NCBI GenBank assembly: GCA_020439745.1
Contig: JAGQSC010000036.1
Coordinates: 124,001-188,000, forward strand
DNA length: 64,000 nucleotides
Source: Acidobacteriota bacterium
Lineage (GTDB): Bacteria > Acidobacteriota > Holophagae > Acanthopleuribacterales > Acanthopleuribacteraceae
Reading direction: 5' to 3'
Below the pieces are notes generated by a model that had not been told where the DNA came from, did not search any database, and saw only the letters and a list, made by a program, of their open reading frames with translations. This document shows positions 26,605 to 36,682 of this stretch, piece by piece. Numbering within the stretch: position 1 is the first letter of the stretch; each line of letters opens with the position of its first letter. The position numbers and the translations under genes are program-made.

Positions 26605-27030
26605 GAGGCTGTAGGCCGATTGACCCGGCAGCCCACCCCGATCCCGACGTAGTCGGGTGAGGGGTGGGTTACAAAAAATATTTGCGAGAGCCCAAAGCAA
26701 AGCGGCGGGCGACTGACATCATCTGTGAGACAAGCAAACCGTCATGGATTTGAATCGCTTGCTTTGCTGCAATGTTTTCGCACGGATGGTGCGGTTTCCA
26801 ATTAACCCTGGGGTTTTAACCCCAGATTAGATCCAAACAATAGGGCCAACCCCGGCAGGGGTGACGTAAACATAAGCTCAAAAAACGTGTATGTTTTGAT
26901 GAAGACGGGCATCGCGTTTGATCACAAAACCTCTGATGAGGACGTCACCCCTGCCGGGGTTGAGGGTCTATCTTTATGCGGTTACCCGGGGTTGAAACCC
27001 CGAGCTAAGTTCAAACAACCCCTGTGGGGT
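26605..27030. repeat. Transposase-less palindromic element, copy 1 (REPIN/BIME-like)
   Basis: About 426 bp without a gene. It opens with AGGCCGAT-type sequence and a hairpin CCCACCCCGATCCCGAC...GTCGGGTGAGGGGTGGG. Then a GCGC hairpin, CTGGGGTTTTAACCCCAG (26809-26826) and CCAACCCCGGCAGGGGTGA follow. About 80 bp of unique sequence separates these from the inverted counterparts TCACCCCTGCCGGGGTT (26945-26961), CCCGGGGTTGAAACCCCG and CAACCCCTGTGGGGT. The first 220 bp recur, near-identical, at 36249-36470. The ends match those around the transposase gene at 33453. The rest of the gap 26367-27069 shows nothing else. Confidence 0.83.
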
Positions 27031-27069
27031 CTATGAAGGTCCATCAATTTGTTTGCTCAGGCAATGGGT

Positions 27070-30511: not shown

Positions 30512-31324
30512 TTGGAACGATCCCCAGAAGTTACCACCTTGGCGGTCTTTTGCGATTTTGAGAACGTGGCACTTGGTGTTCGCGACGCGAAATTCTCTCG
30601 CTTCGATGTGAACAAGGTACTTGAGCGACTGCTACTGAAAGGCAATATTGTCGTCAAGAAGGCCTATTGCGACTGGGAACGCTACAAGGAATTTAAGGTT
30701 GCCTTACACGAGGCATCCTTTGAACTGATCGATATTCCCCATGTGCGACAGTCAGGTAAGAATTCCGCCGATATTCGCTTGGTCGTAGACGCCCTCGATT
30801 TGTGTTACACCAAGGCTCATGTCGACACCTTCGTGATCATCAGTGGTGATTCTGATTTTTCGCCCCTGGTCAGTAAGCTGCGCGAGAACAATAAGACCGT
30901 GATTGGATTAGGCGTCAAGAATTCAACCGCAGACCTGTTGATCGCCAATTGTGACGAATTCATCTTTTACGATGATCTGGCCCAATCCGATCGCGATACA
31001 CAGAAACGACGCGCCAAGTCGACGCGATCCTCGAAACCGGTGCCAACCTCACAAAAACCTGTTCTGGACCCCAAACACCAGGAAGTGTTTGAATTGGTTG
31101 AAGAGACGATTGAAGCGCTGATGTCCGAACGCGGGGCCGAGGACAAGATCTGGGGCTCCATGATCAAACAGACGCTGAAACGCCGAAAACCAGGCTTCAG
31201 CGAGTCCTACTACGGTTTTCGATCCTTTAGTCAGTTGTTGGAAGCTGTGGCCAAACATGGTCTGATTGAATTGAGCTACGACGAAAAATCAGGCGGATAC
31301 ACCATCCAGTTAGTAAATCGATAG
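30512..31324 (+). CDS. NYN-domain (PIN-like) nuclease with LOTUS/OST-HTH tail
   Basis: 270 residues. The NYN domain (DUF88/LabA-like, residues 8-155) has the acidic residues of a metal-dependent RNase: AVFCDFENV, KNSADIRLVVDAL and FVIISGDSDFSPLV. A charged linker (165-190) leads to a winged-helix LOTUS/OST-HTH domain with GAEDKIWGSMIKQTLKRR and YGFRSFSQLLEAVAKHGLIEL, which binds RNA in relatives. The pair of domains is common in bacteria; RNA decay is the likely role. TTG start at 30512 has AGGAG seven bases upstream. Confidence 0.9.
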   Translation: MERSPEVTTLAVFCDFENVALGVRDAKFSRFDVNKVLERLLLKGNIVVKKAYCDWERYKEFKVALHEASFELIDIPHVRQSGKNSADIRLVVDALDLCYTKAHVDTFVIISGDSDFSPLVSKLRENNKTVIGLGVKNSTADLLIANCDEFIFYDDLAQSDRDTQKRRAKSTRSSKPVPTSQKPVLDPKHQEVFELVEETIEALMSERGAEDKIWGSMIKQTLKRRKPGFSESYYGFRSFSQLLEAVAKHGLIELSYDEKSGGYTIQLVNR

Positions 31325-31815: not shown

Positions 31816-31972
31816 CGTACCTATGCCTTTCATTCCTTTGCTCGGTCGTGTAGAGAACGAAATATATATTTGAAATTTGATGGGACGGCCTATTGGAGTC
31901 TGGGCCAACGGGAAAAGAGACCAAGTGGATGCTCACCAAAATCAGAAACAAAAAGAAGCATTGGGGGAAATG

Positions 31973-32227
31973 ATGAGAGATCACAGACGGATTGATGAAA
32001 TATTGGACTTAATTAAAGAGATCTGGATGCGCGACCCCGATGTTCGGTTCAATCAATTGCTGTACGTCCTTCAATCCAGTTACTCCAAGCAACATGCGGG
32101 TTTGGGTCGAGTAGAGGAGAAAGACACATACGGAACAACACGCTTGGGTTTTGATTTTTTCAATTTGGAGGATAGTTTGTTTCTGAAACACTTACATAAA
32201 GTGGCAAATGAGAAAAAGAAGTCATGA
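31973..32227 (+). CDS. Small helical protein, RDxxRIDEIL family, copy 1
   Basis: 84 residues, helical: RDHRRIDEILDLIKEIW, then RDPDVRFNQLLYVLQSSYS and FFNLEDSLFLKHLHKV. Its twin lies at 34155-34409. I recall similar short proteins annotated as YihD/DUF1040-like, without known function. GGGGGAA precedes the ATG pair at 31970/31973; the frame is open further upstream, but that extension is not shared with the twin. Confidence 0.65.
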   Translation: MRDHRRIDEILDLIKEIWMRDPDVRFNQLLYVLQSSYSKQHAGLGRVEEKDTYGTTRLGFDFFNLEDSLFLKHLHKVANEKKKS

Positions 32228-33326: not shown

Positions 33327-34056
33327 CGTCGTCGCGCCAGAGGCGCGGTTTCCAATTAGCCCGGGGTTTCAACCCCGGGTTGGGCGTCAAAACCCAGGCC
33401 AACCCCGGCAGGGGTGAAGTAATATGGTCACCATGACAACGAAGGGGGACGTATGTCAGGAACCTATTCAAATCTCAATTTCCACGTCGTGTTCAGTACG
33501 AAAGGGTGTCGTCGCCTCATCATTCACGATTTGGAACAAGCGCTACACAAATACATCAGTGCGATTGTGAAGCAGAAAGGTGGCCAGGTGCTTCGTATGG
33601 GTGGCACCGAAGACCATGTTCACATGGTGATGCGCTTGAAGCCGGCGATGCCGATACCTGACTTGATGAGACAGATCAAAGCCCAATCATCCAAATGGTT
33701 CAATGATCGCCACAACCTGCCGGAGCCATTTTCATGGCAAGTGGGTTACGGCATCTTCTCGGTGAGCCAATCTCAATTGAATGAGGTGATACGTTATGTT
33801 GATCAGCAGAAGACGCACCATCGCGAGATGAGTTTCAAACAGGAATTTGCAGCCATGTTGAAACGCCAAGGCGTGGCGTTCGATCCTAAATATTTGTGGT
33901 GAACAAATCACCTCTGCCGGGGTTCTAGTGTGTTTTTTGTTGAGTTACCCGGGGTTGAAACCCCGGGCTAAATCCAAACAACCCCTGTCGGGGTTGACCA
34001 ATTGATACGCACCCCTCCCTGCGGTCGGGAACCCGGGTCAATCGGCCAACGGCCTC
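33327..34056 (+). mobile_element. REP-associated tyrosine transposase element with palindromic inverted ends
   Basis: Left end: GCGC hairpin (33333-33348), TTAGCCCGGGGTTTCAACCCCGGG (33356-33379) and CCAACCCCGGCAGGGGTGA (33399-33417). The transposase gene follows. The right end repeats these in inverted order: CACCTCTGCCGGGGTT (33910-33925), TTACCCGGGGTTGAAACC onward (33946-33971), and CAACCCCTGTCGGGGTTG. A degenerate reversed copy of the outer sequence (GGGTCAATCGGCC..CGGCCTC) ends at 34056. Two relatives lacking the gene lie at 26605 and 36249. Confidence 0.82.
33453..33902 (+). CDS. IS200-like Y1/REP-associated (RAYT) transposase
   Basis: 149 residues, complete. HUH-type single-strand transposase: metal-binding HVH in TEDHVHMVMRL, and the catalytic tyrosine probably in VIRYVDQQKTHH. 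The N-terminus reads SNLNFHVVFSTKGCRR and the end YLW, as in the IS200-like subgroup. Such enzymes nick at hairpin-bearing ends; the flanking palindromes fit. AAGGGGG precedes the ATG. The gene appears intact and could act in trans on the transposase-less elements. Confidence 0.9.
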   Translation: MSGTYSNLNFHVVFSTKGCRRLIIHDLEQALHKYISAIVKQKGGQVLRMGGTEDHVHMVMRLKPAMPIPDLMRQIKAQSSKWFNDRHNLPEPFSWQVGYGIFSVSQSQLNEVIRYVDQQKTHHREMSFKQEFAAMLKRQGVAFDPKYLW

Positions 34057-34154: not shown

Positions 34155-34409
34155 ATGAGGGATCCCAGGCGAATTGATGAAATATTGGTCTTGATCAAAG
34201 AGATATGGATGCGTGATCCAGACCTTCGGTTCAATCAGCTCCTATACATCCTTCAATCCAGTTACTCAAAGAGTCATGGTGAATGGGGGCGAGTCGAGGA
34301 GACAGACACATCTGGATTAACACGCGTGGGATTTGAATTGTTCAATTTAGAAGACACCGTTTTCCTTAATCATTTGCACAAAGTAGCCTCAAAACCCGAG
34401 AAATACTAA
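34155..34409 (+). CDS. Small helical protein, RDxxRIDEIL family, copy 2
   Basis: 84 residues, about three-quarters identical to the product at 31973: RRIDEILVLIKEIWMRDPD, FNQLLYILQSSYSK and LFNLEDTVFLNHLHKV. The same similarity is visible in the DNA. The copies flank the transposase element. Function unknown; possibly a YihD/DUF1040-like protein. Start ATG is weakly supported by GGAG ten bases upstream. Confidence 0.65.
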   Translation: MRDPRRIDEILVLIKEIWMRDPDLRFNQLLYILQSSYSKSHGEWGRVEETDTSGLTRVGFELFNLEDTVFLNHLHKVASKPEKY

Positions 34410-35674: not shown

Positions 35675-36175
35675 ATGCGTTGGAGCAAGCTCAAGAAGGT
35701 TATTGAGGAAGGATTTGCGCCCTCTATTGCCGGTCGCGTCACCTTATTGACGACACGATACCGGCACGCACACGACCAGGAAGGTAGGTGGGCCCTACTG
35801 ATTGATGGCAAGGAGGTGGGCGGTATGGGATGTATTGTGGCTGACCGTGAAGAACGCGACCTTATCCAGAAAGCACGACTCGAGGAAGGTGTGTCCGCGA
35901 GTTCGGCTCAGGCAAAAGCTATGGCCGTCCTCGCTGAAAACGGCAGGCACACCTTGCCAATGTTTAATCATTCTGTATTTTCGTTTACCCAACTATCCAT
36001 AAACGAATCACTTGATTCCGCAGACGCAGTCTTGAAGTCGCTGGCCTACTTAGATCGCAGACTGGGGAAAAGACGCCTGGCCATTTTGTCTGCCAGTCCG
36101 CCCAAAACGTTGATGGAACGTGCATGTTTGAGCTTAAGGCTGAATTCAGAGCGCATCTCAATTAGCTGGGCCTAG
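35675..36175 (+). CDS. SF0329-like family protein
   Basis: 166 residues. MRWSKLKKVIEEGFAPSIAG, TRYRHAHDQEGRWALLIDGKEV, SINESLDSADAVLKSLAYLD and RRLGKRRLAIL follow the order of a family I know as SF0329, seen near toxin-immunity genes. Role unknown, presumed immunity-like. GGAGG lies 20 bases upstream of the ATG, too far for certainty about the start. Last gene of the island before the third palindromic element. Confidence 0.65.
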   Translation: MRWSKLKKVIEEGFAPSIAGRVTLLTTRYRHAHDQEGRWALLIDGKEVGGMGCIVADREERDLIQKARLEEGVSASSAQAKAMAVLAENGRHTLPMFNHSVFSFTQLSINESLDSADAVLKSLAYLDRRLGKRRLAILSASPPKTLMERACLSLRLNSERISISWA

Positions 36176-36248
36176 GCGACATTCAACGTCTGTCGTGAAG
36201 GATTACTGACGTCGATATCCAACTTCTTGATGCCGCAATGGGATTTAT

Positions 36249-36682
36249 GAGGCCGTAGGCCGATTGACCCGGCAGCCCACCCCGATCCCGACACAGTCGG
36301 GTGAGGGGTGGGTTACAATAAATATTTGCGAGAGCCCAAAGCAAAGTGGCGGGCGACTGACATCCTCTATGGGACACAAGCAAATCGTCATGGATTTGAA
36401 TCTCTTGCTGTGCTGCAATGTCTTCGCGCCAGAGGCGCGGTTTGTAATTAGCCTGGGGTTTCAACCCCAGGTGACATGGCAAAAACCCTGGCCAACCCCG
36501 GCAGGGGTGGCATGATCAAGATTTTTAATATGGATTAGGTCGCGATATGGCATCCTCAGTGCTTTGGTATCCCTCTTTTTGCCGTTGAACACATCACCCC
36601 TGCCGGGGTTCTAGTGTGTTTTTTGTTGAGTTACCCGGGGTTGAAACCCCGGGCTAAGCTCAAACAACCCCTACGGGGTTGT
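36249..36682. repeat. Transposase-less palindromic element, copy 2
   Basis: About 434 bp with the same plan as 26605-27030: CCCACCCCGATCCCGAC hairpin, GCGCCAGAGGCGC hairpin (36427-36439), CCTGGGGTTTCAACCCCAGG (36452-36471), CCAACCCCGGCAGGGGTGG, about 75 bp of unique sequence, then inverted CACCCCTGCCGGGGTT, TTACCCGGGGTTGAAACC..., CAACCCCTACGGGGTTG. Its right end is almost identical to that of the transposase element, including GTGTGTTTTTTGTTGAG. It fills the gene-free stretch 36176-36719. Confidence 0.83.

What the first reader, a model, noticed from the sequence alone, without database searches (positions are those of the whole stretch)
33327..34056. Complete RAYT element with palindromic inverted ends
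An intact IS200-like transposase is framed by ends that are reverse complements of each other, each with two palindromes. Both GGGGTT.AACCCC and CCCCGGCAGGGG sit on the two sides. This is the arrangement reported for REP/REPIN systems with a RAYT. The left outer hairpin GCGCC.GAGGCGC also occurs alone elsewhere.
Basis: partly seen in the sequence, partly recalled or inferred. Interest (0 to 1): 0.68.

Follow-up and report, generated by a model that had tools for sequence, protein, structure and literature searches.

The report
IS200-like transposon with three-hairpin inverted ends
A small jumping-gene enzyme of a little-studied type sits between two mirror-image blocks of three DNA hairpins; the same blocks flank its relatives in several bacterial phyla, are scattered as short gene-less copies, and include a sequence that databases list as a bacterial RNA of unknown function.

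Summary
The element is real, but it is not a RAYT. Window 33332-33996 carries an intact 149-aa Y1/HUH transposase whose motifs (DHVH, WQ, Y...Q..HH) and place in a tree fit TnpAY1 "subclass 1.2", described in its one classification paper as lacking REPs and generally lacking IS-end structures. Each end is a ~92-bp unit of three hairpins (A, NTAG-B, C); the two units are inverted. This is general: inward units lie on both sides of 17 of 23 tnpA genes not used in training (20 of 23 on at least one side). The stems covary. In 119 genomes of the host phylum, units occur in 23 of 24 with such a tnpA and in 10 of 95 without. Gene-less inverted pairs are dispersed; two lie in the window. Hairpins B and A, read outward, are Rfam RF01687 "Acido-Lenti-1 RNA": 65 of 69 matches in 80 tnpA loci coincide with a unit. 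Best reading: a single-strand transposon with symmetrical three-hairpin ends that spawns REPIN-like miniatures, Acido-Lenti-1 being its end. Binding, cutting, cut sites and present mobility are inferred; no empty site was found. The window's own ends score below Rfam's cut-off.

The parts
33332..33423 (+). left end: complete three-hairpin unit (A-B-C), C side towards the gene
   Evidence: R1 69.1 bits, E 1.4e-14 (this unit is also in the training alignment A2)
33333..33347 (+). hairpin A (left, outermost)
   Evidence: detector
33356..33379 (+). TTAG foot (33356-33359) and hairpin B (33360-33379)
   Evidence: AGC at this place is invariant in the 64 aligned units (the AG partly by selection)
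33402..33415 (+). hairpin C (left, innermost)
33453..33902 (+). tnpA, 149 aa, Y1/HUH transposase of subclass-1.2 type (DHVH, WQ, YVDQQKTHH)
   Evidence: Pfam PF01797 E 7.4e-26; NCBIfam NF033573 above cut-off; tree; AlphaFold2 mean pLDDT 94.3, best PDB matches ISDra2 and IS608 TnpA
33902..33996 (-). right end: inverted three-hairpin unit (C'-B'-A'), C' side towards the gene
   Evidence: R1 51.5 bits, E 3.1e-10 (also in A2)
33910..33923 (-). hairpin C' (right; one mismatch in the stem)
33948..33971 (-). hairpin B' (33948-33967) and CTAA foot (33968-33971, = TTAG on the - strand)
33980..33995 (-). hairpin A' (right, outermost)
36424..36681 (.). tnpA-less inverted pair of the same family (unit 36424-36516 + and 36588-36681 -)
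   Evidence: 85% (left) and 93% (right) identity to the element's ends; R1 62.3 and 65.0 bits
26778..27033 (.). tnpA-less inverted pair of the same family, more diverged (26778-26870 + and 26939-27033 -)
   Evidence: 80% and 77% identity; R1 29.5 and 53.7 bits
34007..34056 (-). part of a unit of a second family, next to the element; not part of it
   Evidence: aligns to the upstream end of the tnpA of same-genus genome G001 (L030), and its A half to window 36180-36420
36247..36364 (+). unit of the second family, just left of the 36424 pair
   Evidence: aligns over its length to the upstream end of tnpA in same-genus genome G001 (L030); 11 other matches in the genome

Best explanation
A single-strand (HUH/Y1) transposable element. 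Its TnpA belongs to TnpAY1 subclass 1.2. Both ends carry the same recognition module, three small hairpins A-B-C with an NTAG foot at B, in inverted orientation, so that either DNA strand shows an equivalent pair of ends. TnpA is inferred to recognise the hairpins when the DNA is single-stranded (for example on the lagging-strand template), to cut beside hairpin A with its tyrosine, and to move either the tnpA element or tnpA-less inverted pairs of ends, which have become dispersed REPIN-like miniatures. The B+A half of the module, read outwards, is what Rfam holds as the Acido-Lenti-1 RNA. Shown here: the protein family, the shared module, its inverted placement, its covariation, its co-occurrence with tnpA, dispersed gene-less pairs, and the match to RF01687 in relatives. 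Inferred: binding, cleavage, the exact cut sites, single-strandedness, and mobility today.
For: Protein: IS200/IS605 model above cut-off, RAYT model far below; clade of subclass-1.2-type proteins 97/89, sister to IS200-like; fold closest to ISDra2 and IS608 TnpA; Y115, Q119 and H57 invariant, H55 at least 90%, in 83 sequences. Ends: in 58 of 90 genes the two flanks are inverted repeats above the 99th percentile of mismatched pairs. Three-hairpin unit in 98 of 180 flanks, against 4 of 352 shuffles, 3 of 165 distant stretches and 17 of 180 flanks read in the opposite orientation. Covariation: 183 cells changed on both sides against 42.1 in shuffles, 0 of 500 as high. Genes not used in training: inward units on both sides in 17 of 23, on one side in 3 (counted). 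Co-occurrence in 119 genomes: 23 of 24 with tnpA, 10 of 95 without (Fisher p 9e-16). In the 150 listed units of the own genome and its relatives, neighbours within 150 bp are inward in 24 of 29 cases (list). Gene-less pairs in G004 have related bodies and mostly unrelated flanks; no target duplication is seen. RF01687: 65 of 69 matches coincide with a unit, on the opposite strand, and 52 of 69 lie within 250 bp of tnpA, where 9% of the bases lie.
Against: No empty site and no movement was seen. 14 of 90 genes have no inward unit by R1 within 250 bp, 6 of them in Bacteroidota, and 3 of 23. Units of the wrong orientation also lie within 250 bp: upstream in 13 and downstream in 18 of 90 genes, in 3 and 5 of 23. 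Within the tnpA loci, neighbouring units are outward about as often as inward (36 and 34; same direction 24), partly because of alternating arrays. Ten genomes carry units without subclass-1.2 tnpA, three of them many (G094, G118, G164), and in G094 no Y1 transposase was found. G099 has the gene but no unit at the threshold. The window's element has only one tnpA-bearing copy in its genome. The window's own ends reach RF01687 only at 32.8 and 25.8 bits, below Rfam's 37, and 53 of 80 tnpA genes have no RF01687 match at that score within 250 bp on the outward strand.
Confidence: 0.8

Rival explanations
1. RAYT/REP system proper: the gene is a REP-associated tyrosine transposase, domesticated, that acts on ordinary REPs.
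For: Hairpins with an NTAG foot, inverted pairs, low copy number of the gene and scattered gene-less copies all resemble REPtrons and REPINs.
Against: RAYT model 22.8 against a cut-off of 80; Y...Q..HH instead of Y...NP, and a clade apart from the NP proteins; the unit has three spaced hairpins rather than one GTAG-tagged hairpin.
Confidence: 0.06
2. The units are structured RNAs, as Rfam files Acido-Lenti-1; they regulate tnpA or other genes, and the inverted placement is secondary.
For: RF01687 was proposed as a probable RNA (Table 1 of PMC2864571, passage); covarying stems fit RNA as well as single-stranded DNA; units lie right beside both ends of tnpA.
Against: RNA does not predict inward placement on both sides of the gene, gene-less inverted pairs with mostly unrelated flanks or the co-occurrence with tnpA.
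Confidence: 0.07
3. The units are independent intergenic repeats and the tnpA gene merely inserts between or into them, as ISPpu9 does into REPs of Pseudomonas putida (PMC8450116, abstract in the listing).
For: Units exist in genomes without the gene (G094, G118, G164); inverted unit pairs exist without the gene.
Against: An insertion into one unit would split it, while in 17 of 23 genes both flanks carry a unit; in the window, and in G087 for three of seven pairs, the gene's own ends match gene-less pairs of the same genome in sequence (the other four pairs of G087 match less or not); the association is seen in Acidobacteriota, Planctomycetota, Verrucomicrobiota and others.
Confidence: 0.07

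Closest known systems
TnpAY1 subclass 1.2 (Quentin et al. 2018, PMC6006769)
   Same: Length (149 aa against a median of 148), DHVH, WQ, Y...Q..HH, low copy number, close to IS200 transposases.
   Different: [quoted passage not shown] Here the genes are often flanked by a shared three-hairpin unit, and the 80 relatives kept are mainly Planctomycetota, Verrucomicrobiota, Acidobacteriota and Bacteroidota.
Rfam RF01687, Acido-Lenti-1 RNA (Weinberg et al. 2010, PMC2864571)
   Same: Its 46 positions are hairpin B, CUA, linker, hairpin A of the unit, read on the outward strand.
   Different: Filed as an sRNA gene; the two passages I saw make no link to a transposase. It leaves out hairpin C and the inverted partner.
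IS200/IS605 insertion sequences (IS608, ISDra2)
   Same: HUH/Y1 TnpA fold and catalytic residues; hairpins near both ends; no target duplication seen.
   Different: As I recall, IS200/IS605 ends are one hairpin each and unlike each other, read on one strand; here there are three per end, alike and inverted. Nearly identical further copies of tnpA are not seen in the host genome.
REPtron / REPIN / BIME with RAYT (TnpAREP)
   Same: Inverted pairs of hairpin units, gene-less dispersed copies, NTAG foot at hairpin B, arrays in alternating orientation.
   Different: Another transposase class; three spaced hairpins per unit; units at short distance on both sides of the gene.
TIRtron / TIRYT (Di Nocera et al. 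2013, PMC3733652)
   Same: A Y1 transposase gene between long inverted repeats, some of them self-complementary, with repeat families in the genome.
   Different: Per PMC6006769 the 26 published TIRYTs fall in subclasses 2.1 (20), 2.2 (4) and 2.5 (2), none in 1.2. I did not see the TIR sequences, which are in a figure.

Membership tests
RAYT / TnpAREP (class 2) | NCBIfam NF047646 above cut-off | tested here: not met
   22.8 bits, cut-off 80
RAYT / TnpAREP (class 2) | Y...NP tyrosine motif | tested here: not met
   YVDQQKTHH; 82 of 83 aligned proteins have Y...Q..HH
RAYT / TnpAREP (class 2) | flanking single-hairpin REPs with GT[AG]G foot | tested here: not met
   TTAG foot at the middle of three hairpins
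TnpAY1 subclass 1.2 | DH[IV]H, WQ, Y...Q..HH, ~148 aa | tested here: met
   of 83 aligned proteins, the window's among them, 67 have DH[VI]H, 83 WQ.GY, 82 Y...Q..HH
TnpAY1 subclass 1.2 | clade next to IS200-type proteins | tested here: met
   97/89 support, sister to the IS200-like group 97/91; the authors' own reference sequences were not used
TnpAY1 subclass 1.2 | no REPs, generally no terminal secondary structures (as published) | tested here: not met
   a correction to the description rather than an exclusion
IS200/IS605 insertion sequence | TnpA with HUH and Y1, IS200 model | tested here: met
   78.2 bits, cut-off 55
IS200/IS605 insertion sequence | unlike ends with one hairpin each (recalled) | tested here: not met
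   three hairpins per end, ends alike and inverted
IS200/IS605 insertion sequence | insertion without target duplication | tested here: inconclusive
   20 inverted pairs: mean shared word 3.2 bases, 3.5 in cross pairs; no empty sites
IS200/IS605 insertion sequence | excision as a single-stranded circle, cutting by the tyrosine | not testable with these tools
   -
REPIN | dispersed inverted pairs of palindromic units | tested here: met
   24 of 29 neighbouring pairs within 150 bp inward in the list. In the tnpA loci inward and outward are about equal, 34 and 36
REPIN | units are REPs that depend on a RAYT | tested here: inconclusive
   units track subclass 1.2; RAYTs were not counted genome by genome, but no Y1 protein was found in G094, which has many units
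RF01687 Acido-Lenti-1 | match at Rfam gathering score, window's own ends | tested here: not met
   32.8 and 25.8 bits against 37
RF01687 Acido-Lenti-1 | match at gathering score, ends of relatives | tested here: met
   69 matches in 33 of 80 loci; 27 of 80 tnpA genes have one within 250 bp on the outward strand; in a second set 7 matches in 5 of 20 loci, two of the five being training contigs
RF01687 Acido-Lenti-1 | is transcribed as an RNA | not testable with these tools
   -

The most novel reading that the evidence does not exclude
A third kind of REP-like mobile system, beside IS200/IS605 and RAYT/REPIN: subclass-1.2 TnpA with symmetrical three-hairpin ends usable on either strand, which has seeded genomes of several bacterial phyla with miniatures (604 unit matches in 119 genomes of the host phylum alone, a capped count), and the orphan 'Acido-Lenti-1 RNA' is not an RNA gene but its DNA end.
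Probability: 0.5. Interest if true: 0.75.

Novelty: new variant of a known kind. Interest (0 to 1): 0.62.

Why it matters
It gives a likely substrate to a transposase subclass that was described as having none, and it offers an explanation for a bacterial RNA family proposed in 2010 of which a 2026 paper still says that little is known, and which that paper reads as a possible gene regulator (PMC13298647, passage). It makes a direct test possible: does TnpA bind and cut single-stranded Acido-Lenti-1 DNA? If so, Rfam matches to RF01687 mark transposon ends and miniatures, and annotations that treat them as regulatory RNAs need a second look. A symmetrical end would also be a useful contrast to the one-strand ends of IS608 and ISDra2.

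Tried and rejected
RAYT reading: spoken against. Searches on viral contigs: none with the single protein, one fragment with the alignment. Empty sites: a search of the own genome with the left flank of the 36424 pair returned another repeat family instead; a search of G006 with a 9.4-kb stretch of its congener G005 returned dispersed repeats, and I did not pursue it to an empty site. Target duplication: none above the cross-pair level. Flank homology between copies: little or none in most G004 and G087 comparisons, but the three G065 pairs (L252/L253 strongly), the two C26 copies of G000 (L145), one side of the two G001 C31 copies (L151), one side of L139/L142 and, more weakly, L247/L248 share flanks, so those are not independent insertions. 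In G087 the seven pairs fall into groups whose bodies barely align to each other (scores 29-44 of ~400 between L243-L246 and L247-L249).

Limits of the counts. R1 was trained on 64 units from the same 90 loci that searched, so 66 of 90 'both flanks' is partly circular; the 23 genes are the fairer test (25 searched, 2 dropped because their contigs have the lengths of two training contigs; both had units on both sides). Those two contigs lie in G065 and G130, so the 119-genome count is not wholly free of training data either. That searches drew the same 119 genomes is inferred from the handles listed; the lists of negatives are cut. The detector asks for stems and a TAG or CAG, so the share of paired cells and the AG are partly by construction; the spread of compensatory changes is not. 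Of 67 units extracted, I left out four (one flank each of L070, L076, L087, L111) and added the window's right unit to make 64. In one search only 35 candidates per genome were scored, at most 150, 46, so numbers are lower bounds; the list shows 150 of 177 matches. Four genomes with weak profile hits (44-60 bits: G017, G120, G124, G140) were counted as lacking subclass 1.2. The genomes are related, so the Fisher p-values overstate independence. The gene-less pairs were picked because they were inward pairs; the neutral counts are those. The tree used 44 of the 83 rows of A3 and 21 of the 29 other Y1 proteins; the other 8 were left out as fragments or without a clear tyrosine motif. Of the 14 genes without an inward R1 unit, L028, L030 and L107 still have inverted flanks above the threshold.

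Literature. PMC6006769: abstract, section 12, section 15 (part 1) and passages. PMC3733652: section 16 and passages. PMC8266576, PMC2864571, PMC13298647, PMC10059132 and PMC7682815: passages. PMC8450116: listing only. Bertels et al. 2017: not seen. Searches. In what these listed or showed me I saw no link of Acido-Lenti-1 to a transposase nor of subclass 1.2 to hairpin ends, but only open-licence papers are held and I did not see the 2010 paper's supplements. PMC10059132 reports multiple RF01687 copies in a Vibrio anguillarum chromosome; I did not test whether that genome has the gene.

Full report
What is there. The window holds a 149-aa open frame, 33453-33902 (+), that matches Pfam Y1_Tnp (E 7.4e-26) and the NCBIfam IS200/IS605 model above its cut-off (78.2 against 55), while the RAYT model stays far below its own (22.8 against 80). 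The flanks are inverted repeats of about 70 bp at 76% identity; 500 dinucleotide shuffles reach at most a score of 28 against 57. Each flank has three hairpins.

The protein. Its motifs DHVH, WQ and YVDQQKTHH and its length are those of TnpAY1 subclass 1.2 in PMC6006769 (Table 1). That paper lists 'no' REPs for the subclass and says its members are generally without the terminal structures of IS200. I aligned 83 proteins: Y115, Q119 and H57 are invariant. A tree of 65 rows puts 44 such proteins in one clade (97/89), sister to 7 IS200-like proteins (97/91), with 14 Y...NP proteins apart (100/98). The AlphaFold2 model has mean pLDDT 94.3; its best PDB matches are ISDra2 and IS608 TnpA, mostly in complex with their end hairpins, and TnpAREP comes 30th.

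Copies in the genome. The ends recur without tnpA: two inverted pairs lie in the window (36424-36681 and 26778-27033) and one on contig C33, with solitary right ends on C6. With the covariance model described below, the genome has at least 48 units of several families at E 0.01 (150 of 632 candidates scored). It has two further subclass-1.2 genes, on C27 and C56; the latter shows a stop in frame but not.

The ends are general. With the window gene, seven genes of related genomes and two plasmid genes this makes 90. The two flanks of one gene are inverted repeats above the 99th percentile of mismatched pairs in 58 of 90. A hairpin detector finds the A-B-C unit in 98 of 180 flanks, against 4 of 352 shuffled flanks, 3 of 165 stretches further away, and 17 of 180 flanks in the opposite orientation; both flanks in 40 of 90, either in 58 of 90. 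The spacing is narrow: 10-13 bases between A and B in 85 of the 98, and 20-26 between B and C in 78 of the 98.

Covariation. In an alignment of 64 units, 14 of 15 pairs change on both sides; 183 cells are compensatory against 42.1 in shuffles, and no shuffle of 500 reaches the observed value of any of the five measures; sliding the partners drops pairing from 91.5% to 31-57%. The units were selected for having stems, so the percentage itself is weak evidence; the variety of pairs is the evidence.

Genes outside the training set. A covariance model R1 was run on 25 tnpA loci. Two have the contig lengths of training contigs and were dropped. Of the remaining 23, 17 have an inward unit within 250 bp on both sides, 3 on one side (L183, L188, L196) and 3 on none (L181, L197, L207); units of the wrong orientation lie within that distance on 3 left and 5 right flanks. 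On the 90 training-related loci the figures are 66, 10 and 14, with wrong-way units on 13 upstream and 18 downstream flanks. Six of the 14 are Bacteroidota; three of the 14 (L028, L030, L107) still have inverted flanks.

Co-occurrence. In the window's genome and 20 relatives, units occur in the 5 that have the gene (16-56 each) and, weakly, in 1 of the 16 others (3 units). In 119 genomes of the phylum, 24 have the gene; units occur in 23 of them and in 10 of the other 95 (Fisher p 9e-16; genomes are related, so this is a guide only). G094, G118 and G164 have many units without a subclass-1.2 gene; a Y1 family search found nothing in G094, one partial match in G118 and three matches in G164. 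These may be relics.

Gene-less pairs. In the listed units of the own genome and its relatives, neighbours within 150 bp face inward in 24 of 29 cases, outward in 3, and the same way in 2 (from the 150 rows listed). In the tnpA loci the picture is mixed: inward 34, outward 36, same way 24, with alternating arrays such as L082 and L097 and tandem ones such as L091 contributing. I fetched inward pairs from G004 (6), G087 (7) and G065 (3). They run from hairpin A to hairpin A. In G004 the bodies align with scores of 108-271 of about 390-414, while the 150-bp flanks stay at 12-19 except one at 36; in G087 L244/L246 score 303 of 400 over the body and 18 and 15 over the flanks. The ends of G087's tnpA element match three of its seven pairs (L244, L245, L246: 90-105 of ~188 per end), one less (L243) and three hardly. 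The G065 pairs and some others share flanks and are duplications of larger segments. No target duplication is seen: 3.2 bases on average against 3.5 in cross pairs.

Acido-Lenti-1. Rfam family RF01687 matches the B and A hairpins on the outward strand. Among 80 tnpA loci (443,637 bp) there are 69 matches at the gathering score, in 33 loci; 65 coincide with an R1 unit on the opposite strand, 4 with none; 52 lie within 250 bp of tnpA although only 9% of the bases do. RF01687 was made from other data and without the transposase as a criterion in anything I saw, so this is a largely independent line. In the 119 genomes, 29 have RF01687 at E 0.001 (24 over the gathering score), all of them among the 33 with R1 units; it occurs in 21 of 24 genomes with the gene and 8 of 95 without, and in none of 14 control genomes. 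The 2010 paper lists it as a probable RNA in Acidobacteria and Lentisphaerae; a 2026 paper says little is known about its function and suggests a regulatory role near proteases in Tannerella. The window's own ends fall below the gathering score (32.8 and 25.8 bits against 37), so for this element the link rests on its relatives.

How it probably works. Known TnpA enzymes of this fold act on single strands, find a hairpin, and use a short guide beside it to choose the cut (IS608, ISDra2; for REPs PMC8266576, passages). The module here has an AGC at the foot of hairpin B that is the same in all 64 aligned units, like the GTAG foot of REPs, and hairpin A marks the outer edge of the gene-less pairs. 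I infer that TnpA reads B, with A and C placing or pairing the ends, and cuts outside A. Because the ends are inverted, both strands offer an equivalent substrate, unlike IS608 (recalled). None of this last step is shown here.

Standing. The kind of thing is known (Y1 transposase with palindromic ends and miniatures); the combination is a new variant: a subclass without a known substrate, a three-hairpin end, and an explanation for an orphan RNA family. The main weakness is the lack of any direct sign of movement or of TnpA binding.

Noticed in passing
window 36247-36364 and 34007-34056; 11 further matches in the genome: A second three-hairpin unit family in the same genome, whose sequence matches the end of the tnpA of the same-genus genome G001 (L030); five of its 12 places lie within about 70 bp of a unit of another family.
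   Followed up: partly
window 31877-32227 and 34155-34409: Two similar small ORFs on either side of the element, both with a sub-threshold DUF1040 match (E ~9e-4), among other short unassigned ORFs and an SF0329 protein (35675-36175); looks like an array of small accessory genes.
   Followed up: no
window 30512-31324: NYN domain followed by an OST-HTH/LOTUS domain, possibly an RNA-acting protein.
   Followed up: no
L082 2813-5747, L097 2402-4393, L091 3468-4198: Dense arrays of units, largely alternating in L082 and L097 with a period near 115 bp, and tandem in L091; BIME-like.
   Followed up: no
genome G094 (also G118, G164): Many units and RF01687 matches but no subclass-1.2 tnpA; no Y1 transposase found in G094.
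   Followed up: partly
G128: L235, L236, L237: Solitary units that share a ~45-bp tail on one side; L235 and L236 also share the flank on the other side, with an inverted pair of words at the outside (GGCTTTGTTGA.. and its near complement), perhaps a larger miniature that has captured a unit.
   Followed up: no
L143 (G004 C364), upstream of tnpA: Two tandem ~70-bp repeats of the A-B half only, upstream of the complete unit.
   Followed up: no
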